In this document: piece after piece, positions 24,861-48,100 of the stretch
Numbering within the stretch: the stretch's first letter is position 1
Layout: each line of letters begins with the position of its first letter
Virus record (IMG/VR): IMGVR_UViG_3300044641_006190
Span: 1-64,000 of that record
Length of the DNA: 64,000 nucleotides
Origin: a virus
Reading direction: 5' to 3' (one strand)
Made by a program: the position numbers and the translations under genes
Notes under the pieces: generated by a model
What the model was told of the DNA's origin: nothing
Seen by the model: the letters and a program-made list of their open reading frames with translations, nothing else
Databases searched by the model: none

Positions 24861-25057
24861 AGAACGTTCGTCTCACCCCCAACAGAAAAGCATTCCTGGC
24901 CATGCTTGACCTGTTTTGTGCCGTCACCGAAACCCGCCTCCTGCCTGCGGTAAACTCTCCGCTGCATCACACGTTGCGCTGGCTGGTGGACGATGCCGGA
25001 CACAAATCCCGTCGCCGCAAGACCCGGCTCAAACACCGCAAACCACGCCGCCGATGA
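24857..25057 (+). CDS. Small basic protein
   Basis: 66 residues starting MKNVRLTPNRKAFLAMLDLF. A short helical part (LHHTLRWLVDDA) is followed by a very basic tail (KSRRRKTRLKHRKPRRR). It overlaps the nuclease and oxygenase genes by four bases each. It probably binds nucleic acid; the family is unknown. Confidence 0.5.
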   Translation: MKNVRLTPNRKAFLAMLDLFCAVTETRLLPAVNSPLHHTLRWLVDDAGHKSRRRKTRLKHRKPRRR

Positions 25058-25572
25058 ACGAACTGTTTTACCCCCACTCCGAGGAACAGGAGACCTATCC
25101 GATCTACGAACTCCCGGGCTTCCTGACCGACGAGGAGATCAAGTTTTTCCGCGACTACATCGACCAGGTGAACTTCCGCCAGAAAATTCTCGCGGACTCG
25201 AAGATCGCCAAGGTCATCGAGGCCAAAGTACGTCAGCACAATTTCCCGGATGCCGGGACTTTCTACGGGTGCTCCAAGGAGATCACCGTCTCCAAGCACG
25301 TCGCGCCTTTCCATATCGCCACCCACAAGGACAACCGCAAGGACGAGGGGCGCAAAAAGAACCTCAAGAAACTCTTCGTCTATCTCGACGAGGACGAGGA
25401 AACCCCCGACAGCGGCGGAACCATCTTCCTGGACAAGAACCGGAAGCCGGTGGCCACCATCAAACGGGAGCGCGGAAAAGCGTGCTTGTTTGACATCCGG
25501 CAGCTCCACAAAGGACAGAAACTTGTCAAAGGCACCAAGTACCTCATTGGCACACGCCTGCTCTACTCCTAA
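25054..25572 (+). CDS. 2-oxoglutarate/Fe(II)-dependent oxygenase, P4H-like
   Basis: 172 residues. It opens with YPIYELPGFLTDEEIKFFRD, typical of the prolyl-4-hydroxylase-like fold. The HxD pair is in HIATHKDN (about residues 87-94), LKKLFVYLDEDEETPDSGGT is the central strand block, and the distal His is in FDIRQLHKGQKL, with a basic residue of KGTKYLIGTRL for 2-oxoglutarate. It hydroxylates an unknown substrate. Its place between a nuclease and a DNA methyltransferase makes a DNA base or a replication protein plausible, but the sequence does not decide this. Confidence 0.8.
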   Translation: MNELFYPHSEEQETYPIYELPGFLTDEEIKFFRDYIDQVNFRQKILADSKIAKVIEAKVRQHNFPDAGTFYGCSKEITVSKHVAPFHIATHKDNRKDEGRKKNLKKLFVYLDEDEETPDSGGTIFLDKNRKPVATIKRERGKACLFDIRQLHKGQKLVKGTKYLIGTRLLYS

Positions 25573-26892: not shown

Positions 26893-26916
26893 CCAACCCA
26901 TACACCCGACCCACCT

Positions 26917-27186
26917 ATGAAAATCTCCTCCCCCAAGTCCTTCCGCCGACTGCCCCCTCCCATCGCGGATTTTCCGCGCTCCGGCCGCCCCAAATCTCCG
27001 CTTTTGCTGACCCTTGAGGCTCTTGATGTCGGGCGTTACATCGACGTTCACCTCGTCCGTGGCCAGAAGCCGACACTCAGGACGATCCGTTCCAGCCTTC
27101 CGCGCTGGGGCAACCGTCTTGGCAAGACGTTCAGCATCCGCAAGCATGCCGGTGAGGAAAGAGTCTCAATCTACCGCGTCAAATGA
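26917..27186 (+). CDS. Small basic unknown protein upstream of DNA polymerase
   Basis: 89 residues from ATG 26917, chosen because the longer reading would run through the terminator. It is basic, with PPPIADFPRSGRPKSPLLLT and a beta-rich end (GRYIDVHLVRGQKPTLRTIR, GKTFSIRKHAGEERVSIYRV). It overlaps the polymerase ATG by four bases and may be a polymerase-associated factor. Confidence 0.55.
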   Translation: MKISSPKSFRRLPPPIADFPRSGRPKSPLLLTLEALDVGRYIDVHLVRGQKPTLRTIRSSLPRWGNRLGKTFSIRKHAGEERVSIYRVK

Positions 27187-28883
27187 TCGCCGTTGACACA
27201 GAAGCCACCTATTCCAAAGACCGCTCCATCGGTCCTTTGGGTGTTCACGGCTACGTCTCCCACCCGGAGACGGACCACTTCATGTGCTCCATCTATGACG
27301 GAGACACAGGACTTGCGTTTGTCGGACACCCCAAGGACGCCCCCTGGGAGGCCATTCGCGGGCAGGATGTCTGCGCCCACAACTACTCCTACGACCGCGC
27401 CGTTTTGCGCGAGTACGAGCGTCGTGGCTACATCCCGTTTGCGTTGGAGGAGCGGGGCTTCTGCACGTCGAACCTTGTGGCCTACCTGCAATCTCCGAGA
27501 TCGCTGCTGGACTCCAGCCGCGAGCTGCTGGGCATCGGCCTCGACAAGACCACCCGCGACAAATTCAAGAACAAGGACTATTACTCTCTTCCCGACGAGG
27601 TGAAGGAGGAGATTGCCCGCTATGCTCTTGGGGACGCCAAGGCATGCTGGCTTCTGTGGAAGCAGTTCGCCCACTTGATGCCCGACCATGAGAAATGGCT
27701 GTCCATGCACACGACCCTCATGGGAGACCGTGGCGTGGCTGTGAACACTGCCGCCGTCGAGAGCGGCATTGACCGCTATAAGACGCGGTTGTGGGAGATC
27801 GAGCAGGAAATCCCCTGGGCAAAGGAGCACCCGGTCACCTCGCCCATCCAGTTGAAGAATGCCTGCCGTGCCGCCGGAATCCCGGTGCCGGACTCCACCG
27901 CCATGAAGGACGAGCTGTTCCAGGCGTGGAGCAAGAAGTATGCGGAGGCGGTGCCTTTCGTGGCAGCGGTTCAGAAATACCGCTCGGTCAACCGCTCGCT
28001 CAAGGTTTTGGAATCCATCCAGACACGCACCCATGGCGGGCGTGTCCGCTACGGGCTGAAATACTTTGGAGCCAATCACACGGGCCGCTGGTCCGGCGAT
28101 TCCGGGCTCAACATGCAGAACCTTCCCCGCGACGAGGTGGATGGCGTGAACATCCGCAACTGCTTTGTGGCAGGGCCGGGTCGCAAGCTGTTCATCGCGG
28201 ACTACTCGCAGATCGAGGCCCGCGTGTCCTTGTGGCTGTGCGGCGACCACGAGCAGTTGGAACTCGTCCGCAACGGCATGTGCGTCTATGAGGCCCACGC
28301 CCGCAAGACGATGGGGTATGATTTGGGCATGCCGCTCAAGCAGGCAGCCAAAGAGGACCCAAAGTTCTTCGATCTGCGTCAATATGCCAAAGCCCGGTGC
28401 CTATCCGGCGACACACTGGTACTTACCCATCGAGGGTATGTTCCCATATCGAAGGTAAAACTTGACGACCGCCTTTGGGATGGGGTAGAGTGGGTCAATC
28501 ATGGAGGAGTCATTCAATCAGGGCACAAGCAAACTGTCGCTTTCCACGGAGATCGGTTTACGCCGGAACACCAGTTGTTTACCGACGACTCCCAAACAGA
28601 AGCTACCTCCGACGTTTTACGGAGCGGATCACCCGCAGTGGACCGGTTCCGTGAGCGAGTATCCAGTTGGTCAGATGTTTGGGCATTGGCGATTGCTATC
28701 CAACGAGTTTATTCGCGTACGTGGATACAAGCGGCTTCGCTGTCTTTGCACTTCTTGCGGGACCGAGCACGACGTGTCTTTCGATACGCTCAGAAACGGT
28801 ATATCAACTCGGTGCGGACCGTGCGGTATTCGCAAGTCACGTCAGACACGGGACTTACAAAAGTGGGGGAGAGTTCTGGATGA
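27183..28883 (+). CDS. Family A DNA polymerase, N-extein plus intein N-part
   Basis: 566 codons. Residues 1-405 are the N-extein: exonuclease motifs AVDTEAT (Asp5, Glu7), CAHNYSYDRA and YALGDAKA, then polymerase motif A FIADYSQIEARVSLWL (about residues 335-350) and the start of motif B FDLRQYAKAR. From codon 28398 the intein begins (CLSGDTLVLT, then LWDGVEWVNHGGV, then block B GDRFTPEHQLFTDD). The roughly 95 residues after block B have no domain character because this frame then runs through the HNH gene. The remainder of the polymerase is in a different frame at 29312-29956. Confidence 0.88.
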   Translation: MIAVDTEATYSKDRSIGPLGVHGYVSHPETDHFMCSIYDGDTGLAFVGHPKDAPWEAIRGQDVCAHNYSYDRAVLREYERRGYIPFALEERGFCTSNLVAYLQSPRSLLDSSRELLGIGLDKTTRDKFKNKDYYSLPDEVKEEIARYALGDAKACWLLWKQFAHLMPDHEKWLSMHTTLMGDRGVAVNTAAVESGIDRYKTRLWEIEQEIPWAKEHPVTSPIQLKNACRAAGIPVPDSTAMKDELFQAWSKKYAEAVPFVAAVQKYRSVNRSLKVLESIQTRTHGGRVRYGLKYFGANHTGRWSGDSGLNMQNLPRDEVDGVNIRNCFVAGPGRKLFIADYSQIEARVSLWLCGDHEQLELVRNGMCVYEAHARKTMGYDLGMPLKQAAKEDPKFFDLRQYAKARCLSGDTLVLTHRGYVPISKVKLDDRLWDGVEWVNHGGVIQSGHKQTVAFHGDRFTPEHQLFTDDSQTEATSDVLRSGSPAVDRFRERVSSWSDVWALAIAIQRVYSRTWIQAASLSLHFLRDRARRVFRYAQKRYINSVRTVRYSQVTSDTGLTKVGESSG

Positions 28884-29404
28884 TAAGGATCGAGTTTTGC
28901 AACAGCGGTGGAACGCCATAGTCCATAGATGTTGCAACCCTTCCAGTAAGCATTACCCCAATTACGGGGGGCGCGGAATACGAATTTCCGAGGAGTTTTT
29001 GTGTGACGTTACTTTTGTCAACTACGTCAAAGAACTGCCCGACTGCCCCCAGATAATAACCCAAACTCACACCATAGATAGGATTGACGTAAATAAGCAC
29101 TATGAAAGAGGAAACCTCCGCTTCGCAACGCATCAGGAACAGATGCGGAATTTACAGTCCACGGCGCACGTCGAATTTAAGGGCACGATTTGGGATGCTC
29201 GTTCGTTCTGCGAACAATTTTGCAAAAACTACCGCCCGCATGTGGTTGCTCGCCTCATTAAAAAGGGCGTGTCGGCTGAGCAGATACTTTTCAAGGACCG
29301 GAACGACCGCCATGTCGGGCGTCGATGGATGCGAACCCGTCTATGATATCCTAGACTGCGGGCCTCGGCACCGTTTCTGCACGCCTTGGGCGGTGGCCCA
29401 CAAC
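28398..29404 (+). mobile_element. Split or frame-disrupted intein in DNA polymerase motif B
   Basis: The insert runs from Cys1 (28398-28400) to the terminal Asn (29402-29404), which is followed by Cys as C-extein residue 1. The exteins rejoin as QYAKAR then CLGLGFGLGAARF, the O-helix motif of family A polymerases. The insert is 1007 bases, not a multiple of three. Block A/B DNA is in phase 0, the HNH gene in phase 1, and block F/G (VYDILDC to WAVAHN) in phase 2. The splicing parts total about 100 residues. Trans-splicing of two polypeptides, or two frame changes, is needed to make the polymerase. Confidence 0.88.
28501..29346 (+). CDS. HNH endonuclease nested in the DNA polymerase intein
   Basis: 281 codons from ATG 28501; the functional start may be later, for example GTG near 28650, because the first about 50 residues overlap intein block B. 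The N-terminal zinc-binding domain is VGQMFGHWRLLSNEF with RCLCTSCGTEHDV and TRCGPCGIRKS. The HNH core is RWNAIVHRCCNP, YPNYGGRGIRISEEF, THTIDRIDVNKHYERGNLRF and ATHQEQMRN. A NUMOD-like C-terminal helix domain follows (WDARSFCEQFCKNYRPHVVA, KKGVSAEQIL). It presumably promotes homing of the insert. It belongs to a different HNH subfamily from the TerL-intein enzyme. Confidence 0.87.
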   Translation: MEESFNQGTSKLSLSTEIGLRRNTSCLPTTPKQKLPPTFYGADHPQWTGSVSEYPVGQMFGHWRLLSNEFIRVRGYKRLRCLCTSCGTEHDVSFDTLRNGISTRCGPCGIRKSRQTRDLQKWGRVLDDKDRVLQQRWNAIVHRCCNPSSKHYPNYGGRGIRISEEFLCDVTFVNYVKELPDCPQIITQTHTIDRIDVNKHYERGNLRFATHQEQMRNLQSTAHVEFKGTIWDARSFCEQFCKNYRPHVVARLIKKGVSAEQILFKDRNDRHVGRRWMRTRL

Positions 29405-29956
29405 TGTTTGGGCCTTGGCTTCGGTCTTGGCGCGGCACGTTTCCAATCCTACGCCAAAACCATCGCAGGTCTCGATCTCACCGCCGAGGAGTCCGAGCGC
29501 ACCGTCAACCAGTTCCGGGCGTCGAACCCAAAGATCGTCGCCGTGTGGAACAACCTCGGCCGCGCCCTTGCGGTTGCCAGCCGCGAGAAGGACCGGACTT
29601 TCGAGATGGAACTGCCCTCCGGCAGAACCATCCGGTATTGGGACGTGGTCCAGACCCGTGACGGCATGTTTGTTCGCCGTGAGCGCGGCGGCGAACGCGT
29701 GAAGATGTTCCCTGGCAAGCTGTTCGAGAATCTCGTTCAGGCCACCGCCCGTGAAGTCTTCGCCCTCGCCATCCAGCGCATCGAGCAGGCCGGGGTCGCG
29801 GTTGTCATGCACACCCACGATGAAATCATCTGCGAGATTCCCGATGACATGGACGGAGCGGCGGTGATCCCGCCGTTGATGACGGAAATCCCGCCGTGGG
29901 CCGCAGGTCTGCCCGTGGGTGTCGAGTTCACCACCAGCCAGTATTATGAAAAGTAG
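29312..29956 (+). CDS. Family A DNA polymerase, intein C-part plus C-extein
   Basis: 214 codons from ATG 29312; the frame is open upstream to 29102 but that part is the shadow of the HNH gene. It begins MSGVDGCEPVYDILDCGPRH with the intein end AVAHN, then C-extein CLGLGFGLGAARFQSYAKT (rest of motif B), EKDRTFEMELPSGRTIRYWD, LVQATAREVFALAIQRI and motif C VVMHTHDEIICEIP. The ATG overlaps the HNH 3' end by 35 bases; AAGGA lies 14 bases upstream. A 31-residue C-intein with its own start matches known split-intein C fragments. Mature polymerase would total about 588 residues. Confidence 0.85.
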   Translation: MSGVDGCEPVYDILDCGPRHRFCTPWAVAHNCLGLGFGLGAARFQSYAKTIAGLDLTAEESERTVNQFRASNPKIVAVWNNLGRALAVASREKDRTFEMELPSGRTIRYWDVVQTRDGMFVRRERGGERVKMFPGKLFENLVQATAREVFALAIQRIEQAGVAVVMHTHDEIICEIPDDMDGAAVIPPLMTEIPPWAAGLPVGVEFTTSQYYEK

Positions 29957-30119
29957 TGTAGAAACTATCGCCACAGCACAATCCGTGCTTGACACGTTTG
30001 ACTTGCTTGTTCCTTTGCTGGAGAAGGCCGCCGACAAATGCGAGGACTTGTCCGATGAAGTGGACGAGGCTCTCGATTCGATCGGCGATTGCCGGACTCT
30101 CCTGAAAAAGATCAAGTAG
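29946..30119 (+). CDS. 57-residue coiled-coil protein
   Basis: MKSSVETIATAQSVLDTFDL is followed by an acidic heptad region (LLEKAADKCEDLSDEVDEAL) and CRTLLKKIK. It overlaps the polymerase 3' end by 11 bases. It could be a small polymerase or helicase accessory protein; no family is recognised. Confidence 0.5.
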   Translation: MKSSVETIATAQSVLDTFDLLVPLLEKAADKCEDLSDEVDEALDSIGDCRTLLKKIK

Positions 30120-30148
30120 CTCCACCATCTCCTCATAGCCATCTAACC

Positions 30149-32323
30149 ATGTTCAAATTTTTAAGAAATCTTTCCGCAGCTTCCGTTGAGGATTTCCCGC
30201 TTCCTCCGAACTCCCCCATCACACGTCCATCTTTCGACTCGAAGGACGCTTTCCGTCGCTGGTGCCTCCAGCCTGACACCGACCACTTCTTCGTTTCCGC
30301 CATGTCCGGACTGGCCGAAGTCCAGCGGGTTTCCCAAACCAACCAGCCGTTGAAGATGTTTGGCTACGTCGCCGACTTCGACACGCGTTATGCGGGCGAC
30401 CCGGTTGCGCAGGTGGTGGCCAACACCGACCCTGAGTTCCGGCCGCGCTGGCTTTCCCGGACGTTCTCCGGCGGCATCCGTGCATGGTATGTCTTTGAGG
30501 CACCCATGCTGTTCCACGATGACAAGGTGGGGGTAAAGTTCATTGAGCGTGTGATCCGGGGCCTTGGAGTCCGGGCGCTGTTCCCCGGTTTCGACACCCA
30601 GGCCACGAAGCAGTATTGGCAGTACTTTGAGGCGGGCACCGACTGGGTGGAAGTCCCCGATTCCGGCACCATTCCGCTTGTCCATCTGGAAGGATGGATG
30701 TCGGACTCCATCCTCCTCTCCGCCCGCAACGCGAAACGTGGCCGCATCGCCGTGCCGTTCGACAAGGTGAAGGAGGCGCTCATCGCCCGCTATCCTGGAG
30801 TCTGGCCGGGCGGGTGGGACAACTTCGTTGTCGGGGCTCGCGGCACTCGTTTCTGGGACAATGGAAACGCGCAATCCTGCCTTGTGCGAGAGGATGGGAT
30901 CACCTGCTTCACGGGCGACCGTGGCTTTGTCTCGTGGGCCGACCTGCTTGGCCGCGAGTGGGAGCAGCGCAACACTGACGAGGTTGTCGGAGCCGCCATC
31001 GAAGGCATCTACTTTGAGTGCGCCGCCAACAAGTACTGGCGCAAGGTCGCGGGCATCGGCTGGCAGCCTTTGCAGAAGGAGGACCTCAAGCTGCACTTTC
31101 GCATCTCCGGCATCTCTGACGAACGTGCGCGGGGCGAGACGCTCTCCCCCGTTGACCGCCTCATTCACCAAGTCCAGATCACGCATCCAGTGGCCGGGAC
31201 GTTCCCCTTCCACTACAAGCAGGCGGACGTGGTTTATGTGAACAACCAGCCGTTCCTCAACACCTCCCGCGCCGTGCTTGCCCAGCCGGACGGCTCCGCC
31301 AGCGGACGTTGGGGAGACGGATTCCCGAAGCTGGCCGCCTACTTCGAGGGGCTCTACGACCGGGCCGACAACGAGGAGCAGTTTGCGCATGCCATGGGGG
31401 CGCTCATGCACTTCTACCAGACCGCCTACGCCGGAGATGTCCAGCGCGGACGTGTCCAGATGCACGCCGGACCTCCGGGAGCGGGCAAGACCTACCTCTT
31501 GATGGTCAAAGGGAACATCTTTGGCGCGGTGGAGGATGCCGCCCGGTATCTCTTCGGGCAGGACAGCTTCAACGGCACCCTCTGCCACGCGCCTCTTTGG
31601 GGTGTGGACGATCCGGTGTCCGCCGCCAACACCAAACTTGGCATGGTCTTCTCGCAGATGCTCAAAGCCGTCGCGGCGTGCGACAACATCCCGGTGCGCG
31701 GCATGTATCGAGAAGTCCAGCGCCTCCCCTGGCTCGGGCGCGTGATCGTCAACATGAACGACGATCCCGAGTCCATCCGCATGCTGCCTTCCACGGAGAT
31801 CAACTTGATGGACAAGGTTGACCTCTATGCCATCCAGCGTCCGTTCACCGGCAAGTTCCCAAGCAACGCGGAGATTCAGGCGGAGATACCTGCGTTCTGC
31901 ACCTTCCTGCTTGAAGGCCGGGCATGGCTGGAAAGTCTGGTTCCCGACCTGTTCAGCGATCCTCGTTGGGGCACCAAAAAATACCACCACCCACGGCTCG
32001 TGGCCATCGCACAGGGAGCACAAACCTCCACGGCGGTTGAGGAGCTGCTGCGCCTGTGGCGCAAGATGTGGTTCGCGGTCGCCCAGGACGATGTGTGGAC
32101 GGGAAACCCCACCGAGCTTCTGGATGCGATCAGCCAGATGGAGTCTCTGCGGGACATCTACCGCACCGTCGTCAACAGCCCGCAGGCTCTCGGACGTTCA
32201 CTGGCACAGCTCTGCAACCGCGAGGCTCCTCCTTCGTGGCTGCGGTCGCTCAACAACTCACAGCGCGAGTATTCCATCTACCGGAACGAGATGGGCGCGG
32301 TTATCAACGCAGACCCCTACTGA
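30149..32323 (+). CDS. Primase-helicase (AEP/prim-pol plus SF3-type helicase)
   Basis: 724 residues from MFKFLRNLSAASVEDFPLPP. The N-terminal half has KMFGYVADFDTRY (candidate DxD of archaeo-eukaryotic primase) and SRTFSGGIRAWYVFEAP. The C-terminal half has GRVQMHAGPPGAGKTYLL (Walker A, about residues 440-450), HAPLWGVDDPVSAAN (Walker B-like), GMYREVQRLPWLGRVIVNMN and a sensor/Arg region (LMDKVDLYAIQRPF). This matches phage replicative primase-helicases of the D5/VirE type. It probably supplies both primer synthesis and DNA unwinding for the polymerase encoded upstream. Confidence 0.83.
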   Translation: MFKFLRNLSAASVEDFPLPPNSPITRPSFDSKDAFRRWCLQPDTDHFFVSAMSGLAEVQRVSQTNQPLKMFGYVADFDTRYAGDPVAQVVANTDPEFRPRWLSRTFSGGIRAWYVFEAPMLFHDDKVGVKFIERVIRGLGVRALFPGFDTQATKQYWQYFEAGTDWVEVPDSGTIPLVHLEGWMSDSILLSARNAKRGRIAVPFDKVKEALIARYPGVWPGGWDNFVVGARGTRFWDNGNAQSCLVREDGITCFTGDRGFVSWADLLGREWEQRNTDEVVGAAIEGIYFECAANKYWRKVAGIGWQPLQKEDLKLHFRISGISDERARGETLSPVDRLIHQVQITHPVAGTFPFHYKQADVVYVNNQPFLNTSRAVLAQPDGSASGRWGDGFPKLAAYFEGLYDRADNEEQFAHAMGALMHFYQTAYAGDVQRGRVQMHAGPPGAGKTYLLMVKGNIFGAVEDAARYLFGQDSFNGTLCHAPLWGVDDPVSAANTKLGMVFSQMLKAVAACDNIPVRGMYREVQRLPWLGRVIVNMNDDPESIRMLPSTEINLMDKVDLYAIQRPFTGKFPSNAEIQAEIPAFCTFLLEGRAWLESLVPDLFSDPRWGTKKYHHPRLVAIAQGAQTSTAVEELLRLWRKMWFAVAQDDVWTGNPTELLDAISQMESLRDIYRTVVNSPQALGRSLAQLCNREAPPSWLRSLNNSQREYSIYRNEMGAVINADPY

Positions 32324-34078: not shown

Positions 34079-34356
34079 AATTTCTCCCATACTAGGCGCA
34101 CCCGAGGCGAAAGCCACGAGAGGGCGTGAGGGATGGCCGCAACACCTAGTAGAAGGCACGGCCCCTAACCCCGTTCAGGTAAATGCGGAGGCGAACGTCG
34201 CCTATCCAATAGCGGGTATCAACGAATGACGTGACAGCCGGAGAGACGGCCTTTGTTTGTTATGATGACCCCGACTGGAGAGTGGGGGCTGCGAGATGCT
34301 CGCGGCGCTATTGACGACTTGACCGGGCAGGCGCAACTTTCCAGCCCCGGAAACAG

Positions 34357-34395
34357 CCTCCTCCGTTTCAGCGATGAAGCGGGGGAGGTTTTTTT
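34357..34395 (+). terminator. Very strong terminator after the structured RNA
   Basis: A 14-bp stem (34357-34370 with 34375-34388, two G-U pairs), a GCGA tetraloop and seven T residues. It ends the upstream RNA before the recombinase gene. Confidence 0.93.
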
Positions 34396-34450
34396 GTCTT
34401 ATAGAGCGAAAACACTTGCTAACAAAAGTCTAATAGATAAATACTCCGGC

Positions 34451-35605
34451 ATGACCCACGACACCATCACAGTCAAAGGGCGGGAATTTCCGCTCTACAA
34501 AGAACCTTCCACCGGATACTGGCGCGTGCGCAAACGGACACGCGATGTGTCCATCAACAAATCCACCCGCATCTCCGATCTCGCCGAGGCCCGTAAATGG
34601 GCGCGTGTGTTCATCGAGCGGGAGCTGAACAACAGCTATCGTCTGGCCACCGGAGGACACACGCTTGAGGAGGTTGCCGCCGCGTATCTATCTTTCCCAA
34701 AGGCCGCCCGCGAATACGTCGCCGAGGCCAACGTGGCCCGCCTGCGCACCGTGGTCAGGGAAGCCCTTGGCAAGGAGCTGTGTGAAGTCCGCGTCAAGGA
34801 CATCGGCCCGCGTCTGTGGGAGCAATACGCCGCCTCCAGACACGGCGGCAGGCTCGATCTGTCCACCCCGCGCCGGGAGAACATTGGCATCATGTCGGCC
34901 CTGCGCAGCGCGGCCAGCGTCTTCGCCCGCAAGCTCGACCGCCGCTACAAGGACGCGGGCATCTTCCTTGACTTCGCCAACATGCGCGAGCTTCCATTCC
35001 TGCCGGTTCTACACGTTCACCGCCAGCCGGTTTCCGCTGACGCCATCCAGTCGCTCACAATGGCCTGGAAGTCGCTCCGGCAGGACAATCCGCTGCTCTA
35101 CACCACCATCGGGCTGGCCCTCCATGCGGGGCTCCGCGCCTCGGAGATCGCCGCCGCCCGCCGCAACTGGATCGAGACTGACGGCAGCGCCGTCCGTGTG
35201 ATCCTGCGTGACCGGCCGGAGGAAGGTTTCCGCACCAAAGGCAAGGTGGACAGCTCGGCATGGGTGAGCGGCTTGGTGCTCGACATCGAGTTCGCCGCGC
35301 ACCTGCTTTCACTGCCGGACGGCCTCCTGGTTCCGGTTGAAGGAAGCAAGGCATGGTTCTTCAAGACCATCGTCAATCAATGGGTGCGCCAGTTCATCCC
35401 ACGAGAACTCGACGGTAAAGGATTGCACCGCCTGCGCGGACTCTACGGTGACGCCGTGAAGTCCCGTTTCGAGGCCCAGATTCTTGCCCGCACTGCGTCG
35501 ATCGACGCCGCACGCCTGGCTCTTGGCCACACCTCTGCCGCGATCACTTTGCGGAACTATCTGACGCCGGACGCTGCCAGCACCACTCCGGGTAATCTAG
35601 GCTAG
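34451..35605 (+). CDS. int: Tyrosine recombinase (phage integrase)
   Basis: 384 residues from ATG 34451 (MTHDTITVKGREFPLYKEPS). The N-terminal arm/core-binding region has GYWRVRKRTRDVSINKSTRI, then a SAM-like helical domain. The catalytic domain shows HAGLRASEIAAARRNWI (first Arg), GKGLHRLRGLYGDAVKSRF (His-x-x-Arg) and LALGHTSAAITLRNYL (His and nucleophile Tyr). It either integrates the phage or resolves genome multimers; no repressor or excisionase is obvious. The 3' end overlaps the convergent Cys-rich gene by 62 bp. A TTGCTAACA box lies 40 bases upstream of the start. Confidence 0.87.
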   Translation: MTHDTITVKGREFPLYKEPSTGYWRVRKRTRDVSINKSTRISDLAEARKWARVFIERELNNSYRLATGGHTLEEVAAAYLSFPKAAREYVAEANVARLRTVVREALGKELCEVRVKDIGPRLWEQYAASRHGGRLDLSTPRRENIGIMSALRSAASVFARKLDRRYKDAGIFLDFANMRELPFLPVLHVHRQPVSADAIQSLTMAWKSLRQDNPLLYTTIGLALHAGLRASEIAAARRNWIETDGSAVRVILRDRPEEGFRTKGKVDSSAWVSGLVLDIEFAAHLLSLPDGLLVPVEGSKAWFFKTIVNQWVRQFIPRELDGKGLHRLRGLYGDAVKSRFEAQILARTASIDAARLALGHTSAAITLRNYLTPDAASTTPGNLG

Positions 35606-36137
35606 TTCTGATCTCGAAATCCTGGATGACATCCAAAGGCAGATGAACCTTGGCCCGTAGGACGCACCCGCAAACGCGGCAGGACTCCAAAGCCCTGTCC
35701 CGTTGGGTGGTCCTACCGGCCAGGAACTTCGTCACCTGCGTAAGGATTCCACCACAGCCCCAGCAACCAGTCACGTCCCCGTTGAAGGGGCAAGTGGAGC
35801 AGATTGCCGCACGTCGCTCGGCCTCCTCTTGCGGCACGAACTTGCCGCCAAACTTGAGGACGGTGTTCATGAACCGGCGAAGGTCTGCAATCGTCAGGGA
35901 CCGCTTTGATACATCCACCGGCCTGTCCGAGCATGGCACCTGCAAGTTCTGACGGCACAGGTCGTCTTGGAAACGCTCCTCCCACCCTTCGGCCAGATCG
36001 TAGCCCATGGCTTTGCGGTGGAGGCGAACCTGATCAATGATGCCCCAGTAGGACAACCCGTGGAAGACGGCACCGGATTCCGGCTGCACATACTTCCACT
36101 GGTTCGAGGTTCCACGGGACTTGTTGGTCACTCTCAT
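35544..36137 (-). CDS. Cys-rich zinc-binding phage protein
   Basis: 197 residues. The first 100 contain LSYWGIIDQVRLHRKAMGYD and SKRSLTIADLRRFMNTVLKF. The second half holds two Cys clusters, CSTCPFNGDVTGCWGCGG and CRVCGCVLRAKVHLPLDVI, ending PEWCWQ. The pattern CxxCxxN..GCxGC with a later CxxCGC..KVHLP is a recurrent phage zinc-ribbon family without known function. It is the last gene of the late transcript, overlaps the giant gene by four bases, and converges on the integrase. Confidence 0.65.
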   Translation of the reverse strand: MRVTNKSRGTSNQWKYVQPESGAVFHGLSYWGIIDQVRLHRKAMGYDLAEGWEERFQDDLCRQNLQVPCSDRPVDVSKRSLTIADLRRFMNTVLKFGGKFVPQEEAERRAAICSTCPFNGDVTGCWGCGGILTQVTKFLAGRTTQRDRALESCRVCGCVLRAKVHLPLDVIQDFEIRTSLDYPEWCWQRPASDSSAK

Positions 36138-39100
36138 TTGAGTCGGTATTTGGATTTGGCTTTTTCGGTGGCATCCGAGGCGATCTGGCCCATCGCACGA
36201 GAGAGCTGGGTGTCATCCATCCTGCGCAGGCGGGGCAGTTCGCGGATCATGACGCGCTTCACCTCCTTGCCGCGATAGGTGACATAGTCAATCCACTGAT
36301 CGTCGGTGAGCAGCCCGTTGCGGGCTTCGATGGCACCGCGTTGCGGGAGACCGGGCCCGGTTCCGCGCTCCATGATGAACTCATAGACCGCCTTGTCAGG
36401 GCCGGACGGAGGTGTGAGAACAGCCAGCGGAAGCAGGCCGCTGAGATACAGGCGGTTGCCAACTGTGGCCAGGGTGTCTCCGGTCGGGAACCCACGCGGA
36501 TCACCGAGGGCGTTCACGTCGCGGCGTGTCAGCAAGGAGCGGGCAACCGGCAAGTTTGACCAGATCGCGCCCATGCGGCCACGGCTTTGGTCAGGTCCGA
36601 TGAACAGCCGCTCCACAGACCCGATGAGTCCGCTGAACGGAATGACCGGGTTTGCCTTGTAGAGCACGCTGCCAAGCATGTTGGTATCCGGGCCTTTCCC
36701 GGCGATGAAGCCGACAGTGGATTTGGCTCCAAGGAAAGTGGCCTGCTCGTGCCAGCCTGCCATCACAGCCCCAAGGTATTCACCCATGGATGAGGCGTTG
36801 AGCGGATGTCCAAGTTTGCGGTTGAGGCGCATATCATCCACGGCTCCCGCCATGATCATATTGATCTTCCAGGGCTCCAGAACTCCACGCGCCCAGGACA
36901 GGCTGGCGCGTTTGCCGCCGACGTTCATCTCCAAAGACCCTTGGTGGTGGCCTTGCTTGATCCAGGCATCGCGCTCGGTTTTGTTGGCGGGACCGGCGAG
37001 AGTGACCTTGAAAAGAGGTTCGTCATCGTCGCCCGTCAGGGTTTGCAGCAGCATGACCACAACCAGCGCGGACGAGCCGACGATGGCTTCGGTCAACCGC
37101 TGGCGAAGCTGCATGTCTGTGGCGGCGGACTGGCGGTAGAACTCCACGTCAGATTTGACGCCAAAGGCTTCTTTCTTGCCCGCGTATTTCTTGGCCAGAT
37201 GCCAGCGAAGCAGCCCGTAAGGAGTAAGCCACGCGCCACGGTTCAGGAGATTCAAAGGAACCCCGAAATACCCGAGGAACACACGGCCAAGGATGGGATG
37301 CTTGCGCAGGATGCCATTGCCGACCGAACGCACGGCCATGGAGAAAGTGTTGAGCACGTCCGCAATCGGAGACTCTTCACCGCGATGGTTACCCGTCTCC
37401 AGTTCCGACTCCTTGGAGGCAAACTCGGCGAGTTCTTTTTCGACACGCTTCTGGGTGTCCTGGTCGCCGGAGACCATCTCGGCAATCTCGCGGCCAAGAC
37501 GATGGCGGGCGAGGTCTTGCATGCGGATGGGGACGGACAGGTATTGAATCCGCAGCTCGCGCAGGGCTTCCTTCACACGGCGTTGCGGATTCCACTCAGG
37601 AACGCGCAGAGCCCGGAGAGTGCCGCGAATATCCTGGTCAAGCAGGCGCAGGCTTTCGTTGTTCGGATCGAGGCTCGGGTCGGCATCATTGACGAGCTTG
37701 TCCAGCTCATTGGTGACCGTCTGGTCATCCTTGCCGACCAAATTCTGAACGCGCTGCGTCATGGCGGCAATCATTGACTGCTCGGCCTGCATTCTGACGG
37801 TGAGGTCAGTGGAGGTGCGCGTGACCATGACGTAGGCGTCCGCAGGAGCGATGCCGTTCTTGACCAGTGTCAGGTACCCGGCGGACTTGAGGAAGTAGTT
37901 CTGCATGGTGACATACCACGCCTGATCGCTGGAGGACAGCAGCCTGCGGGTGATGTCGGTCATCGCGGAAAGCGCCCTGGCGGCACCGGAGAGACGACGC
38001 CACAAAGTCTGCTTGCTGTCACGGAACGCCGCCAGTCCGTCGCGGAAGTCGCGGTTGAGGCGGGTGACCTGCAAGACCTGCTGCTGCATCGCATTGGTGT
38101 AGGCGTCCGATTTGATCGAGAAGCGCAGGTTCTTGATGTAGCTGTTGACCACTTCCTCGAAGGACTTGGTGATCAGCTCCACGCGGGACATGTCGCGCTT
38201 GATGGTGGCGGAGCCAAGATCGAGCAGCATGCGGTTGACCATGGAGCCGAGCGGGGCAACGACATTGATCGCCATGGTGGAGAGTCCGCCAAGGGCATTG
38301 TTGTTGTAGCTGATCGCCAGCACTTCCAAAGCGGTCTTCGGCGGCCTGCGCAGCTCGAACAACTGGAACATCTCGCGCAGAGCGCGGGCAACGTCCGTGT
38401 CGCGTCCTTCTGCGGACGCACGCTGGATCATCTCGTCCAGCCGGACGAGCTTGCGGTTGTCGGCGGTGGAGAAGGCGGAGAAGCCCATCTCTTCCGCGAG
38501 CGCCTGGCTGGCACGCAGCGAAGGATCGGCCATGCCAAGACGGATCAGCTCGCGCATGCGGGCGATGTGCTTCTCGGCGAGTGTCGCGGTCTCCTGCTGG
38601 CTGGCGAGCGTGGATTTGCGGTAGTCCTGCTGCTTCTTGACCGCTCTTTCGAGAGCCTTCTCCTTGGCCTTCACGATGTAATCGACAAGGTTCTTCTCCA
38701 CCCAGGAGGCGGCCGCGTCCACTTGGGGAGGACTGAAACCGTTGGCCTCAAGGAAGGTGCGGACAAGCTGCTGACGGATGAGCGGATTGCGGATGGTTCC
38801 GGCGGCTCCGCTTGGGTCAGTGGTGACTCCTGCCGTGTTCTCCTTGATGAACTCGATCAGAGCGGAGAGACGTGTCGGACTCTTGTTCACCAGCTCCTTG
38901 ACCCGGCGCTCGGTGTTGGCGAGGTCAAACAAAGCCTGCGCCTCGACGGTCGTGGCTCCGAACGCGGCGGCCTGCTTCTCGAAGTCGGCAAAGTTGTCCA
39001 TCGGGACAAGGACTTGCTGGCGGTAGAGGGCGCGGATGTTCATCTGGCGGACCTTCTGGTCTGCCGCGATGTTCTTGTAGGTGCCGTCAGGCTGCTTGAC

Positions 39101-42100
39101 GATCTGGATGTTGCGATTGCGTGCCGCCACACGGGAGCGGATGAGAGTCTCCACAGACTTGCGCATGCGGTCCTCGGCCTGCTGGGTGCCACGGACACCG
39201 GCGGTGCTGAACAGCCCGGGGAACTTGCCCTCCATGTAGGCACGCCGGGTCATGAGTTCAGCGTCGTCCTTGGACAGCCCGTTCTTGACGAAGAACTCGG
39301 TCACGACCGCCGTCTGCCAGCCGATGTCGCTGATATCCTTGCCCTCGGCGTCTTTGAACGCCTTGATGATCGAGGCGTAGTTGCCTTTGCCGGGGGAGAG
39401 CACGCGCTCATAGACGCGGGCCATGCGTGCCGCACGCTCGCGGACGGCAGCTCCGTGCGCGGCAAGCGCCAGCATCGGAGCGGTCTTTTTGTCCACGCCA
39501 AGACTGGTCAGGACCGGAACAAGTTGAGCGATTGCCTCGTCCTCGGTGATCCTGGCATTTGCCGGAGTGCGGATGAATTTCTTCACCGTGCTGCGGACTT
39601 TGCCGGACTTGTCGCTCTCGAACGCCTCCTTGACCGCCGGGACGCTGTTGAGGCGGGCGGTAAGACGCTGTGCCTCTTTCTCAGGCATCGCCAAGTAGGT
39701 GGCCCAGGCCAGATCAACCAGCTTCTCGACCAGCTCGTCAGAGATTCCCTCGCCAGACAGCTCGGCGGTCAGGTTGGCCGTGAGTGTGTCGCGGTTGAGG
39801 TTCTGCTCGTTGTTTGCCGCCGCGACCACCATGTCACGGATTCTGTCGAAAAGGGACTGCGTCCACTTCGTCGCCTTGAACTCCTTGTCGAGGAAGCGTT
39901 TGATGACCACCGCGACACGACGCGCAGCGGCGTCGGCCTCGGATTCGTCTTCCGCAGCCTCGCCCTCATCCTCCGCCTCGTCGATCTCCGTGCCGACCTC
40001 ATCGACAGGAGCGGGCGGCGGCGTCGGCTTTGGCTTCGGCCTGCCCTTCGGCGCGGCGGGAGTTTCGATGGTCGGGATTTCACCCTCAACATCAACACCG
40101 GGAGTATCCAAGGAACCTGTGAGTCCGTCTGCCAGATCGGCGATCTCGTCCATGACCTCGTCGCGGAGCTTGGTCAGCTCGCCCAGATCGGTCGGAAGAT
40201 CGGCAAAGTCGTCATCTGAGGACAAGGCATCGTCCACCCAGCTCTGGCGGGAGGCCGCGTTGCGGGAGAGGATTTCCTGACGACGGCGTTCGATCTCGTT
40301 GAGGAGCTTGATCTTGCGCAGCAGAACGGCCATGCTCTCCTTGGCACGTCCGGTGAGGGCTTCCAGACCACGGCGGAAAATATCCATGCTGTCAGCAGGA
40401 GGCTTGGCGTTGTTGATCGTCTTGCCAGAAGCGGAATTGCCATCCAGGGCGTCATCCTTGAGTTCACCGGCGGCCTCAACCTCGCTGTCGAGGTCGCCCG
40501 GGTTCATGCCAAATTTCTTGCCGCCCGCGTCCGTCGCGTCATCAAGCAGCTTCTTCATCTCGTCGAAGACCCTGTTCACTTCGCTGGAATACTGGCCGCG
40601 CATCTGGAGCGCACGTCCGGCTTCCGCCAATGTCAGGAAGGAGCCGAGAATGGCCTGGTTGTAGTTGCCTTTCCATGAGTTGAATACGCTCATGTCGCCC
40701 TGCTTGGCCCCGAGAAGGATGCCGTAGCGGATCAGCTCGGCTTGCAAAGCGATGCCAGCCGCGCTGGCGTTTGGGCCTGCGAGCTTGAGGTAGGAAAGGA
40801 TAAACGCTCCCGGTCCTGCGTTCGGGTCAGTCTTCGTCTTGACCGTGTCCTCCAAGATACGGGCGGTGGCTTCCTTGACCTTGGCCGTGGTTTCCGGGGT
40901 GATCTTCGGCATCCCGTTGTCGTCAAAGGTGAGTCCAAGGAACCTGGCTGCTGCGGCACGGGATTCCGCCACGCTGCGGGTGTAATACGCCTCGCCGCGC
41001 TTTCTGCCAAACACCTGTGCGAACTGCTGCTCGGCCTGGGTGACTGGAGTGGCTTCGAGAATCTGCGAACGAACGGTTTCCGCGTCCCTCTCAGGCTCCA
41101 TGCCGGAGTCGATTGGCGACTGGCGGGCACCGCTGTTATACAGGCGATCCATCGCCTGCGGGTAGGCCACGTTGAACGCCGGGACTCCCGACGACATGCG
41201 GACCAGGTATTTCTTGTCCTGCTCGGACAAGTCCTGCGGACGCTCAAGCGGCTCAAGGAAAGCGACGCCGTTGAGGTCATCCTCCTGGACGCGAGCCATG
41301 AACACGTCAAACGGCAGACCGCTGGCGCGGTGAAGCTCCGGCAGCGAGATAAACGCGCTGGAGGATTTGACGGCCAGCGAGATGTATGCCTGCGTGAGGG
41401 GATCGGAGCGCATGTTGCGCAGCATGGCCGACGCACGTTCCAGCTCGTCCTTGAGGGACGCCTCCTCGGTGACCACCGGGCCTTCGGGAATCTCGCCGGA
41501 GACGAGCGCGAGCGACTGTGCGATGGCCTTGCCAAGCATGGTGCTGCGACCGAACTCGCCGGTGTAGAACAACCTGGCCAGAAGCTCGGATACCCTGCGC
41601 AGGGCGGACTTCACGAAACTAGAGACACGGCCTTCCGGTTTGAATGAGTCGGGCACGCGGTCAAGGAACGCGACGAACGCACGTTCATGCGGGCGGTTCG
41701 GGAACAGCGCGGCGATGAACTCTTCGAGGGTTTTCAGCTCATAATCGAACCGGCCGTAGTTGCCGGTCTGCTTTGCGTAGCTGCGGATTTTCTCCAGCAG
41801 CTCATTGAGGGAGGCCACCACGGCGCGTTCCTGCGCATTGGATGGATTGACGATCTTGCGAACCGTGGCGTGATGAATCATCTCATGCAGCACAAGGCCG
41901 TTGAGGCTGATCCTGCCGCGACCACGCGCCCGCAGATTGATGGAGATTGTGGCAGGGCTGCCGTCGATCCATTCACCGGCGTTCCGCAAGCGTCCGTCCG
42001 AACGGATCATGAAGTTCAGCCCCGACCAGTCCAGCTTGAGCATGGCCTCAATGAGAACCTTCTCCAGATTGGTGGTGAGCTTGTCGTCACGAATGGTCTC

Positions 42101-45100
42101 CAAAACCGCTTTCCAGTTCTGCTGGCCGTGCGATCCAAGCTCGGTCGGAAGGCCAAGCCTTTCGAGAGCCTCCTTGTTCTTTTTCTCAAGGTAGTCGAGG
42201 CGGCGTTCGGAAGTTTCGCGCTCGGCTGGGGATTGACGGGCGTCTGTTCGTACGCTGCCCTGTAACGTCTGGACAGTTGTGCGGTTGACCACCACATCCT
42301 TGAACGCAGATTTCGGCAAAAACTCCTCGAACAGAACTTCGTGAAGTTCTGCCTTGGCCAGGTTGTCAGACACTTTGTCCGCCGTCTCGCCGAGCACAAA
42401 CTGGTCCCGGTTCGCATCGGAGATGACCATCTGCCGTGCCTGCTCAGGCGATCCAATGGCAACGAGGAAATACTTGGATGGCAGACCGTCATCGTCGAGA
42501 TCAACCTTGTCTTCCAATGTCACAACGGTGATCTCTTGGGGAATCAGCGACCGGAGAGCCGCCTCGTCTCCCGCGTCGAGAGCAGTCTCGACATTTGCTT
42601 TCAGCGCAATCAGATCGACTGGCGACGGAGCCGCTCCCTGCGAGGCTCGCATCATACCATTACCGGGCTCCGGGGCGTGTTGCGAGGCTTCAAGAATGCG
42701 CTTGGACCAGTAGAGGTAATACTCGTCGGTTCCGCGCTTCGGGCCTAGACGGCCAAGCACGCGGTTGAGGAACATCTTCACCCAGTCCATGAACTTGCGA
42801 ACGATCGGACGGTTGATCGCCTCGACTCCTTCGCGGTTCAGGATGGTAACGAGTTTGCGGACATACACTTCCTCACGTGCTTCGCGCTCAAGCGAGCGGT
42901 CTGCCCGCCATCCGGCGTATTGGTCGTATCCGCGTGTGACAAGGGCGTCGATCTCCTGCGGAGTCACCACCGCACGCATCTCGGGCTCAAGATAGAGGAC
43001 CAGATCGGCAAACTTCGGAAGCGTGCGAATGGACTCGATCCCACGGTGCATGACCTCATGGACAGTGGCGTCGGCGATTGCCGCCGCAGGACTGCCGTGC
43101 TCGTCAAGCTGGGTAATCTGGTCAACCACCACGAACGCACGGCCTGTTCTGGAGTTGAAGAACCCCTCGTTGCCGTCGCGGATGGCCGCACGGTCGGCAT
43201 TCGTCAGATCGGTGCGCTTGAGCAAATTCTCTGCGGTGTCCACCGTCACAACGTCGTTGATAAACGGCAGCGTCCTGGCCAGAACAGCCAAAGCCTCACG
43301 CGCAGCGGGCAGATCATTGCGGGTCAGAGGACGAATCTCCTTGGCAGGAACCGAGGCGCGGAGCATCGCCCGTTTCTCGCGGATCACCACGTTGATCGCT
43401 TCCGCTGTGGAGGTTTCCACAGGGTTCTCGACATCCAGGATTTCCCCGGTCGGCAGAACACGGAAGTCCGTCAGCGCGGATTGCACGCGCTGGGAAATAT
43501 CCGTGCTGACGCCTTTGACGATGGCTCCCATGTTTGCCATGCGGGCACCAACGCGGACGGAAAGTTTGCGCTCGAACTCGATCTGCGATGTGAACAGCCA
43601 GTTGATGCGGGCTGGCGTCTTCATGCCATAGCGGGCGATGCGTTTCGAGGTCTGCTCGACCTCGGTGCCGCGCCATGGAAGGGTGACCACGATCTGAGTG
43701 CGTGGGTCATTGCCCTTTTGGTCATGCAAAGACAGGCCGGTGCCCCCACGGGCGATGGTGGCGACAAGAACTTTGACATCGCCGGACTCCCATCGACCAA
43801 GCGAATCCTGGCCGGTGACCCCCGACTCGTCGCTGGTGTAGAAGGCCACGTTGTCCCCAAATGCCTTCTTGAACCTCTCCTGCGCGGAGGGGAAGCGGAT
43901 GGTGGTGACCCCTTCGTTGACGAGGGCACGGAAGAACTTGATCGCCCCGTCAAACAGGACGCCAGCCGCCTTGCGGGCGTCGGAGCTTTGATCGACGCCC
44001 GTCTCTTCAAACGCCTCGGCCTTGGCGATCTCCTCAAGCAGATCGTAGTCGCGTTCAGACTTGGTCTCCACAAAGATGGCGACCTTGCGGGAGTTGTTGA
44101 GTTCCTTCTCGGCCATCTCAATGGCGGCCTTGATCTTGGCCGCCTCAAGCACGCGCTTCTGCATGTTGAAGACATACCTGATGGCATTGGAGTCCAGGTT
44201 CTTGGCCTCCTTGACCACCTTGGCCATCTTGTTGTAGAGGTCCACCCATTCGGCCTCTCCCTCGACCAGCGAGTAGTCGAAGGAAGCCATGCCTTCCCCC
44301 AGTCGTGCGGCACGCTGCGAGAACAGTCCGCGCTTTCGCAGGTATTCACGAGCGGCGGATTGCGCGGCAAGCGCGGCAGGCCCCGTGATCTCCCAGTTGA
44401 CCCCGGAGGGCTTGCCTTGCGTGTTGAGCACGACACGTCCGCCAAACACGGCGGCGAAGCCGTAGAAGCCCTGCTTGCCTTCGTAAAGATTCGGAACGTC
44501 AAACTCCTTGAAGATGCCGGTGGGAGCGAGGAACTCCATCTGTGACAAGTCCTCGTAAGGTGTCGCCGAGGCCATGAGGACAAAGCCTGACTTCTTCATC
44601 CACTTCTCCGCATGCGCGGAGCGTGGCGACTGTCCTTCGCGGGAGTAGCGGACATTGTGCGCCTCATCCAAAACAAGCATGTCCGAATCCCTTGGGGGAT
44701 TGGTGGAGTCGCTCTTGTCGAGGCTGGCGTAGGTAATGAAATCAATTTCGTCACCAATGCCGAAATCAGCAATGTCTTCCTTGACCTGATCTATGTGAGT
44801 CTGGCTCTGGGTGACGAAAATGATTTTCGGATTCTTCTTCCCGGATGCCTTGAGCTTGGAGATGATCGACTGGATGGCGGCGGCCATCACGAAAGTCTTT
44901 CCGGTGCCAGGATCGGAGGCGAGCATGAACATGCCATCACCACGGGCATGGGCATTGCGGATGAGCGCCGCGTCGGTGAGCTGTTCGGCAACAACCTCGG
45001 CAAGCATTCCGGCCTTCTGCCCTCCCTTGATGAGGATGTTACGCGCAGATTTGTCGATGGAATTGTTGATCTCGTTGGCGGTGAGCCTCGAAGAATCCGG

Positions 45101-48100
45101 CATCGAGGCTACTCCATCTCTTCGCTCTGCGATGGCGTCTCGTCGTTCTCTGGGGACGAAAGTTCTTCGTCCTCCGACTCGTCCTCCGGCGGAGTCAGCC
45201 TCAAAGACATCATTCCCAAACTGAACAAAGCTCCCATGGTCGCGTATGGTGAAACTGTTGGTGTTCGGGTTGAAGACGAATCCGTTTTTGGTGAGTAGCG
45301 TTCCATAAGTGCGTGTGGTCTCCGAGCGTGGGATGGTAATGGCCCCGTTGGGCTGTAAAGTGGCTTCGATGCCGACACCGGCAAGGTTGCTGATCGTCTC
45401 GTCGAGCTGATCAGCATACTGCTCGTTCATTCCGGCGTAGTCTTCGTCGGACAAACTCTGCGCCTGCTGGAAGTCCCTATATTGGGGAAGGCGGCGAACC
45501 AAGTTGCGCACCTCGTCGAGCTTGGTGCGATTGGTGATGCCTTTGGTGGCTTCTTCGTTGAAGAGAGTGTTGAACAGGTAGATCGGGTCTTCCTCAAGAA
45601 GCTGGTTGATCGACCGGCGTTTCTTCTGACCAAAACCGAGTGGTGCATCCATCTCGGAGGCAGTCGGAGCTTCGCCCACAATGGGCTCAGGGGAGGTAAC
45701 GGAAGCGGCAGCCGGATCGAAACGAGACAGAATTGTGTCGATCTGGGCCTGGTCTGGGAGGGCCTCGATCTGTGGGTAGAAGATTCGCAGTGACCTCCAG
45801 GCGGAGGCAAGCATGTCACGCACCTGCTGCCATAGATCAGGCACCAGTTCCTTCATGGTGGAGACAAAATCCTCGAAGCGCACGACGCCTTCCTGAACAG
45901 CGGCTTTGCCGATGCGAATGAGAATTTGCGCGGCAACATCGGGCCTTCCACCAACAGTGGCGCTCTTTCCAAGTTCTTTGCGAAGCGCGGCGAGGTCTTT
46001 CACTGCGGAGGCGCGGATCGCGTCAATGGCGCTCTTGGTCTTTTCTTTGCGGGCCTGGCGTTCGGAAGTTTTAGGGCGTGGCTTGGCCGCAGGTTTGGCT
46101 GGGGCAGTTTCAGCCGCAGCAGGAGCAGGAGCAGTTTCAGTAGCAGCAGTGGCAGGCTCGGCGACGGGAGCTGTCTCCATTTCCATGACTCGGGTGCGAA
46201 TCTGGTCGCGCTCCGTGTCGTTTTTGGCGGCGGGAAACTTCTCCCATTCCTTGATCGCTTCGGGTGAAGTCAGTTGATCCCGAACCCGCTGCCACTCGGC
46301 GTCAGGAGTCTCCAGATTCATCTTCTGCTGCGCACGCTCGGCTTCCCCGGCGGCTTTGGCGGAAGCAAGCTCGGCAAGCGGATTCTCCGCCTGCGGCTTT
46401 TTCGTCTCTCCACGAACAGTCGGGCGTCGGGATTCCGGCACGTCGAGAAGCATCTCCTCATCTGCTGGTGGAGCGAACCCGGTATCATCCGGGGCACGGT
46501 TGGACTCATCCACCGGAAGCGTCGAGTAGATCGTGCCAGTCGGGTCGATCTTCTGCTGGCCGAACTCACCTCCGGTGAGCACGACAGCGGTGACATTGCC
46601 GTCCTCGTCAGACTCTTGAGTGACGCGCATCTTCTGTCCGGCCACGTCCACCACGTCGCCAACTTCGAGGCTGCTGACCTGAATGGCCTCCGGCAACGCC
46701 TCATTGAACGCGGCGTTCTCGAAATCCACGCGCTGAGCCTCGTCCCTGCGTAGGTTCTGCTCCTGCTTGGTCTGCTGCTTGTTCTGGGTGGTAGAGGATG
46801 CGGAAATCTCACCGATCATGCGCCACATGTCGGAAACGTAAACTCCAAGAGCCTCCGCCGCCTTGTCGGGGGAGAGTCCCGGTCCTGCGGAGGCATAGAT
46901 TTTCTGGTGAGCCGGAGGAAGCGTCGGAGCATCGTCCCACAGGGACTTGTTCTTCTCCCAAAAGTCTCCGCCCATTTTCTGAGCTTTGCTTTTGCTCATC
47001 AAACGACCCAGACTGACCAGTTTCCGAATGGTCGGGTGATCGAGGAAGCTGAGAGATGCAGCCTTCCTCTTGGGGGCTGGGGCGGTGCCAACGTCTCCCG
47101 ACGTGGGCTGTCCTCCAGGTAGCGATGCTGTCGGCACTTCCCCCGCAGGGGTGATTACTTGCGTTTGGACTTGCCCGCTTTCGAGAGGGCGATTGCGACC
47201 GCCTGCTTCTGCGGTCGGCCTTCCTTCATCAACTGGCGGACGTTCTTCGACACGGTTTTCTGAGACGATCCTTTGGCTAGGGGCATTGGTAGGGGTGGGT
47301 GTGGGTTGCGTTGCTGCCGCAGCCGGAGTGACGGCGGTAGTCTGCCCGGTCATACGTTGGATATACTCGTTCGCAGACGGGGTGACTGGTTGCTCGCCAG
47401 CGTTGATACGGGCGGCTTTCGCGGCGAGATCGGTGATCGCCGGATTTGGAGCTTTGCCTCCACGAGGCGACGGCTGCATGATCGAAGCCAATCGCTGCTC
47501 TGTCGGCGATGCCGCTCCCTGAGGAGCAGGCTGGCCCGGAGTAAGCTGCTGGCGCATGGCCTCGGTAACCGTTGCCTCGACGGCCGCCTCCTTGGCTTTC
47601 TCCACGTTGGCGGCACCTTTGCCTGCCAGATCATTGGCGGATTGCCTGAGAGCGTTGGCCGTGGCCGGGGCCACACTTTCCACGTTATCCGCAGCGTTGA
47701 ACACGGCGGCAACAGCGGCGTCGGCGTCCATTGCCACTTGCTCGACCCGGGCAGATTCCTGAGCGGCTGTGTCCGCCACGGGATCAACGGGGGTTGTGGC
47801 AGGTTTGCCAATCCTCATGTTGAACATCTCAGCGGCGGCATTGGCGTCGCCTTTCTCCATGAGCTTGGCCGCATCACGGATGGACTGGAGCCGCTGGTAT
47901 GCCTCAGAAGCCTTGCCGTAGTTCCGATTATCGGAGGCTTCCGCAAGCTGCTTCCGGGCTTCGATTTCCGACCCCACCAAGCTCAACGCAAATTGCTCGG
48001 GAGAGACCGTCGTCGGCTCCGCCTTCTTGGGGCCAAGAGCCGATGCGCCAGCCTTGATGACGCCCCCGGCTCCGAGCATGAATCCAGTTCCGTAGAGCGC

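What the first reader, a model, noticed from the sequence alone, without database searches (positions are those of the whole stretch)
27183..29956. DNA polymerase fractured by an intein with an HNH gene in the third frame
The N-extein plus intein block A/B is in phase 0, the HNH gene in phase 1 and block F/G plus C-extein in phase 2. The insert (28398-29404) is 1007 bases. The C half has its own ATG at 29312 giving a 31-residue C-intein, very like known split inteins. Insertion is in polymerase motif B, so no active polymerase can form without ligation of the halves. This matches the published 'fractured gene' arrangement of split inteins with free-standing endonucleases, but here in a family A polymerase with a zinc-finger/HNH/NUMOD enzyme.
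Basis: partly seen in the sequence, partly recalled or inferred. Interest (0 to 1): 0.9.

Follow-up and report, generated by a model that had tools for sequence, protein, structure and literature searches.

The report
Phage DNA polymerase on two genes
A phage's DNA polymerase is encoded as two separate halves with a homing-nuclease gene wedged between and overlapping them, and the halves very probably join as proteins through a split intein; the same three-gene layout recurs in at least 17 distinct phage loci.

Summary
A family A polymerase is broken at motif B by a 1007-base insert: N-half plus intein blocks A/B in frame 0, an HNH-type nuclease gene in +1, blocks F/G plus C-half in +2. Both non-HNH frames carry several stops inside the insert, so no single frameshift bridges the halves. 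Two ~87%-identical relatives have the intact, intein-free gene. Two divergent loci (L028, L106) share the insertion site and the 0/+1/+2 layout. Some 15 more fractured loci lie at a second polymerase site; most give a 26-residue C-intein with its own Shine-Dalgarno and ATG, and one has lost the nuclease. In the wider family (149 non-redundant inteins) the nuclease is never in frame: in 117 the intein frame runs uninterrupted through the out-of-frame nuclease gene (about 3 expected by chance). Fractured loci look like derivatives in which that read-through constraint was released. Best reading: a functional split intein that rebuilds the polymerase by trans-splicing. Fractured genes are a known class, so this is a new variant. 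Trans-splicing was not shown.

The parts
27183..28397 (+). polymerase N-extein, 405 codons, family A motif A (DYSQIEARV) and first part of motif B (RQYAKAR)
   Evidence: PF00476 6.4e-15, phrog_17 1.4e-51; intact homolog in L003/L004
28398..28650 (+). N-intein (blocks A CLSGDTLVLT and B FTPEHQLF), frame 0, about 84 residues
   Evidence: own intein profile 1.4e-29; 43-56% identity to inteins of EBPR siphovirus 2, Vibrio 97.13, Pseudomonas MR14, L106
28651..28883 (+). frame-0 tail of the N-half overlapping the nuclease gene; ends TGA TAA; probably dispensable
28651..29346 (+). HNH-type homing endonuclease gene, frame +1, GTG start (alternatives ATG 28501, ATG 28675); zinc ribbon CxxC...CxxC, YPNYGGRGI...IDRI...NLRF core, helical C-terminal domain; its TGA stop lies in the VYD codons of intein block F
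   Evidence: phrog_374 1.7e-37; model pLDDT 92.7; stop position
29312..29404 (+). C-intein, 31 residues MSGVDGCEPVYDILDCGPRHRFCTPWAVAHN (blocks F and G), frame +2, own ATG
   Evidence: own C-intein profile 3.5e-12; invariant motif in L028 and L106
29405..29956 (+). polymerase C-extein, 183 codons, +1 Cys, rest of motif B (LGLGFG) and motif C (HTHDEI)
   Evidence: phrog_7766 2e-29, phrog_17 4.3e-29; 86% identity to L003 and L004
28398..29404 (+). whole insert, 1007 bases, G+C 52% against 61-62% in the exteins
   Evidence: empty site in L003 and L004; composition

Best explanation
The polA gene of a phage has been fractured by a split intein together with an overlapping, separately translated HNH-type homing endonuclease gene. 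Three overlapping cistrons in frames 0, +1 and +2 are translated separately: polymerase N-half with N-intein, nuclease, and 31-residue C-intein with polymerase C-half. The intein halves find each other and trans-splice, removing themselves and joining Arg405 to Cys+1, giving the full 588-residue polymerase. The nuclease cuts intein-free alleles at motif B and spreads the insert by homing. Shown: anatomy, exact empty site, a second identical record, conserved layout and splicing residues in divergent relatives, and that no one frame bridges the halves. Inferred: separate translation, trans-splicing, cutting, homing, and origin from an intein that carried the HNH gene hidden at +1.
For: Exact empty site in L003/L004. 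Identical second record. Same site and phases in L028 and L106 with invariant PVYDI, GPRHRFCTP and NCLGL although C-halves are only 41-44% identical. Second fractured clade with own ATG and Shine-Dalgarno for a 26-residue C-intein. All splicing residues kept. Both polymerase halves under purifying selection (pN/pS 0.10-0.15, as between intein-free relatives). No second polA. Stops in non-HNH frames at neutral level in all fractured loci, against none in 117 continuous relatives. Nearest continuous relatives in the intein tree (L197, L198) have HNH at +1.
Against: No experimental or read-level evidence. The Shine-Dalgarno before ATG 29312 is weak. L106 has no ATG near its C-intein (nearest TTG about 43 residues before the splice site). 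The insert may be a recent arrival (lower G+C), so the purifying selection on the exteins may predate it. The nuclease is called HNH on PHROG profiles only.
Confidence: 0.85

Rival explanations
1. Two programmed +1 frameshifts (0 to +1 in the long N/HNH overlap, +1 to +2 near the HNH stop) produce one conventional intein with an embedded HNH domain, which splices in cis.
For: The order 0/+1/+2 is constant in all 17 non-redundant fractured HNH loci, and in 14 of 17 the HNH stop is a TGA at the same codon of block F, which would also allow a shift at a fixed place.
Against: In the second clade the C-half has its own strong start signal, and in L176 and L178 its frame opens 3 bases before the ATG. 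L161 keeps the split with no nuclease between. In 117 relatives the HNH is never in frame with the intein. Such a shift at the TGA would also remove the VY of block F.
Confidence: 0.06
2. The polymerase is dead or its halves work as two unspliced chains, as reported for a reductase split by a homing nuclease; the intein parts are relics.
For: A nuclease-split reductase that works as two peptides is described in the literature (cited in PMC10448857). No splicing data here.
Against: All intein catalytic residues are kept in the window, L028 and L106 although the exteins have diverged widely. The break is inside the motif B helix. Both halves are open and constrained.
Confidence: 0.06
3. Assembly or sequencing indels in a normal one-frame intein, or a group I intron mistaken for an intein.
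For: Metagenomic origin; two indels could formally put N-intein, HNH and C-intein in one frame.
Against: A second record is identical over 3301 bases. The same phases occur in L028, L106 and about 15 other loci. No Rfam match in 28200-29600 at E up to 1. In-frame HNH was found nowhere in the family.
Confidence: 0.03

Closest known systems
'Fractured genes' with split inteins and free-standing endonucleases (Dassa et al. 2009, Nucleic Acids Res 37:2560; cited in held papers, its text not held, content from memory)
   Same: Conserved phage DNA-metabolism enzyme broken by a split intein with an endonuclease gene between the halves
   Different: Here a family A polymerase, an HNH-type rather than Vsr-like nuclease, and three mutually overlapping reading frames derived from an overprinted intein; whether polA cases were listed could not be checked
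Split intein with HNH gene in PolB of jumbo phage MIJ3 (PMC6892783)
   Same: Phage DNA polymerase on two ORFs with an HNH gene between and intein blocks on both sides
   Different: Family B polymerase, N-terminal nucleophile Ser in block A as printed, different intein sequence; overlap of frames not described
DNA polymerase intein of Hamiltonella phage APSE-1 (P45) with nested HNH gene P46 (NC_000935) and relatives such as EBPR siphovirus 2 gp51
   Same: Homologous intein (37-52% identity in the N-intein) and related HNH gene in another frame, in a family A polymerase
   Different: The intein frame is continuous through the HNH gene, so splicing is in cis
ShiLan domain, hidden out-of-frame HNH in a phage methylase (PMC11855218)
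   Same: HNH gene hidden out of frame inside an uninterrupted host ORF; GTG start; mobile
   Different: No intein splicing domains; a methylase, not a polymerase; not fractured

Membership tests
Fractured gene / natural split intein | Host enzyme gene broken into two ORFs by intein halves | tested here: met
   intact gene in L003 and L004
Fractured gene / natural split intein | Intein blocks A, B on the N-half and F, G on the C-half with catalytic Cys1, block B His, penultimate His, terminal Asn and +1 nucleophile | tested here: met
Fractured gene / natural split intein | Separate endonuclease gene between the halves | tested here: met
   overlaps both halves
Fractured gene / natural split intein | Protein trans-splicing | not testable with these tools
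   needs co-expression
Continuous intein with hidden out-of-frame HNH gene (APSE-1 type) | HNH gene in a frame other than that of the intein | tested here: met
   offset +1
Continuous intein with hidden out-of-frame HNH gene (APSE-1 type) | Intein frame open from block A to block G | tested here: not met
   13 and 7 stops in the two non-HNH frames; C-part in +2
HNH homing endonuclease | HNH sequence family or fold | tested here: inconclusive
   PHROG HNH families 1.7e-37, but no significant Pfam family, PDB sequence or PDB fold match
HNH homing endonuclease | Cuts the intein-free allele | not testable with these tools
   needs a cleavage assay; disjunct presence against L003 and L004 is consistent
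Group I intron with HNH gene | Conserved intron RNA structure in the insert | tested here: not met
   no Rfam match at E up to 1

The most novel reading that the evidence does not exclude
A large phage intein family carries its homing nuclease only out of frame, so that one DNA stretch is read both as intein linker and as nuclease. Release of this double-coding constraint gave a class of three-cistron fractured polymerase genes with natural C-inteins as short as 26 residues; some later lost the nuclease and kept only the gene break. This would be an observable route by which split inteins arise.
Probability: 0.6. Interest if true: 0.8.

Novelty: new variant of a known kind. Interest (0 to 1): 0.66.

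Why it matters
It gives a testable series of states for how split inteins and broken genes arise: empty site, mini-intein, continuous intein with a hidden out-of-frame nuclease, three overlapping cistrons, and a bare two-part gene (L161). It adds natural split inteins with short C-fragments (26-31 residues) in a replicative polymerase, useful as protein-ligation tools if they splice well. Annotation pipelines are likely to call such polymerases truncated or broken.

Tried and rejected
Assembly error (identical second record; same phases in relatives). Group I intron (no Rfam match). A second polymerase (none found). DNA-level phage homologs of the region (none) and plasmid homologs of the N-intein (none). 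Relatives through the EBPR2 polymerase in viral contigs (none). PDB sequence matches for N-intein or nuclease (none significant). PDB fold search with the nuclease model (nothing below E=0.001). The pN/pS value for the helicase against L003 is a codon-mapping artefact and was discarded. The C-intein pairing for L172, L173 and L175 mixed two different inteins of one gene; corrected. The FastTree trees are quick, with few columns for the intein tree, so the sister relation to L197 and L198 is only a lead.

Full report
Observation. The window is most of a 65,464-base IMG/VR virus record. ORF 27183-28883 encodes the N-terminal part of a family A DNA polymerase followed by intein blocks A and B. 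An HNH-type nuclease ORF lies in the +1 frame (open 28489-29346, likely GTG start 28651). ORF 29312-29956 in the +2 frame encodes blocks F and G and the rest of the polymerase. Leaving out 28398-29404 joins the flanks into one 588-codon polymerase.

Reality. IMG/VR record 3300042350_004941 (L002) is 100% identical over 26900-30200 and 99.975% over 12.2 kb. L003 and L004 (86-87% identical in the C-half) carry the uninterrupted gene, AKAR-V/T-LGLGFG, which fixes the insertion point to the base. Both non-HNH frames hold several stops inside the insert: 13 in frame 0 and 7 in +2. No single shift therefore joins the two intein halves directly.

Wider family. A tblastn search of phages, three IMG/VR scans with intein or C-half alignments and one scan of GTDB genomes gave 194 intein records, 149 after removing near-copies. 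Of these, 117 have one continuous host-intein ORF and an HNH-type gene inside it in another frame: 71 at +1, 46 at +2, none in frame. Shuffling the synonymous codons of each HNH gene predicts that only about 3 of 117 intein frames would stay open by chance. Loci were picked by intein motifs, not by continuity, so this excess is not built in, although the class 'continuous' has zero stops by definition. APSE-1 is annotated in this way (P45 and nested P46). Thirteen more are continuous without a detected HNH gene.

Fractured members at the same site. Three divergent loci share site and layout: the window, L028, and L106 (a contig of a Phycisphaerales MAG). In each the N-intein is in frame 0, HNH in +1 and C-intein in +2, with stops in both other frames. 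The C-halves are 41-44% identical, yet PVYDI, GPRHRFCTP and NCLGL are invariant. They form one clade with support 98 in both the HNH and the intein tree. In the intein tree their neighbours are L197 and L198 (support 87), which are continuous, have HNH at +1 and sit at another polymerase site. The simplest history is that an overprinted intein with HNH at +1 suffered a frame change on the C-side, after which stops accumulated at the neutral rate.

Fractured members at a second site. Another clade is fractured at GRWGG|S-DxxNLQNLP. Thirteen members start the C-half at an ATG 12 bases before VYD, with a purine-rich Shine-Dalgarno, giving a 26-residue C-intein of the form MLVPVYDIxNCGPRHRFVANGKLVHN. 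In L176 and L178 the frame is closed until 3 bases before this ATG, so initiation there is close to forced. In 14 of 17 fractured HNH loci, the window included, the HNH stop codon is the TGA formed by the TAT GAY codons of block F. L161 keeps the split without a detected HNH gene. L172, L173 and L175 carry this fractured intein plus a second, overprinted intein at motif B. L195 is a further fractured case with no detected HNH.

Function. pN/pS is 0.10-0.15 for both halves of the window polymerase against L003 and L004, as between the two intein-free relatives. Catalytic motifs A, B and C are intact once joined (by inspection). No second polA-like sequence was found. The insert's G+C is 52% against 61-62% in the exteins, suggesting horizontal arrival. 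An integrase-like gene at 34253-35605 suggests a temperate phage.

Mechanism. The break lies in the motif B helix, so two unjoined halves are unlikely to polymerise (established knowledge of family A polymerases). With all splicing residues kept, trans-splicing is the natural way to a whole enzyme. The nuclease, read from its own start, would cut the intein-free motif B sequence and drive homing; the disjunct presence against L003 and L004 fits this.

Limits. Trans-splicing, separate translation, cutting and homing are inferred. The nuclease is called HNH on PHROG profiles alone; a confident AlphaFold model (pLDDT 92.7) found no PDB match. The 2009 fractured-gene paper was not held, so whether polA cases were listed could not be checked. 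The nearest held descriptions are a split intein with HNH in PolB of phage MIJ3 (PMC6892783) and an out-of-frame HNH in a phage methylase without splicing domains (PMC11855218). The literature searches found no description of the overprinted intein family as such, but most subscription papers are not held.

Noticed in passing
L010, L011, L015-L019, L021, L024, L025 and about 107 further loci: Phage inteins, mostly in family A polymerases, whose continuous reading frame runs through an out-of-frame HNH gene; the HNH is never in frame with the intein.
   Followed up: yes
L161:2700-4939: Polymerase split by the second-site intein with no detected nuclease: the N-half stop lies 9 bases before the C-half ATG, a bare two-cistron split polymerase.
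   Followed up: partly
L172:1953-4081, L173:1944-4081, L175:1125-2995: Polymerases with two inteins, one fractured at GRWGG and one overprinted at motif B, each with its own HNH gene.
   Followed up: partly
L195:2026-3295: Another fractured polymerase locus with C-part in frame +1 and no HNH detected; what lies in the roughly 900 bases between was not identified.
   Followed up: no
L186:2108-2986: A continuous HNH-carrying intein that falls inside the fractured second-site clade in the HNH tree; perhaps a reversal or a long-branch error.
   Followed up: no
window 36134-49237 (-): ORF of 4367 codons with a ResIII/DEAD helicase domain in its middle (PF04851, 1e-08).
   Followed up: no
window 24916-25572 (+): 2OG-Fe(II) oxygenase-like ORF (PF13640, 7.5e-07) inside the replication module.
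   Followed up: no
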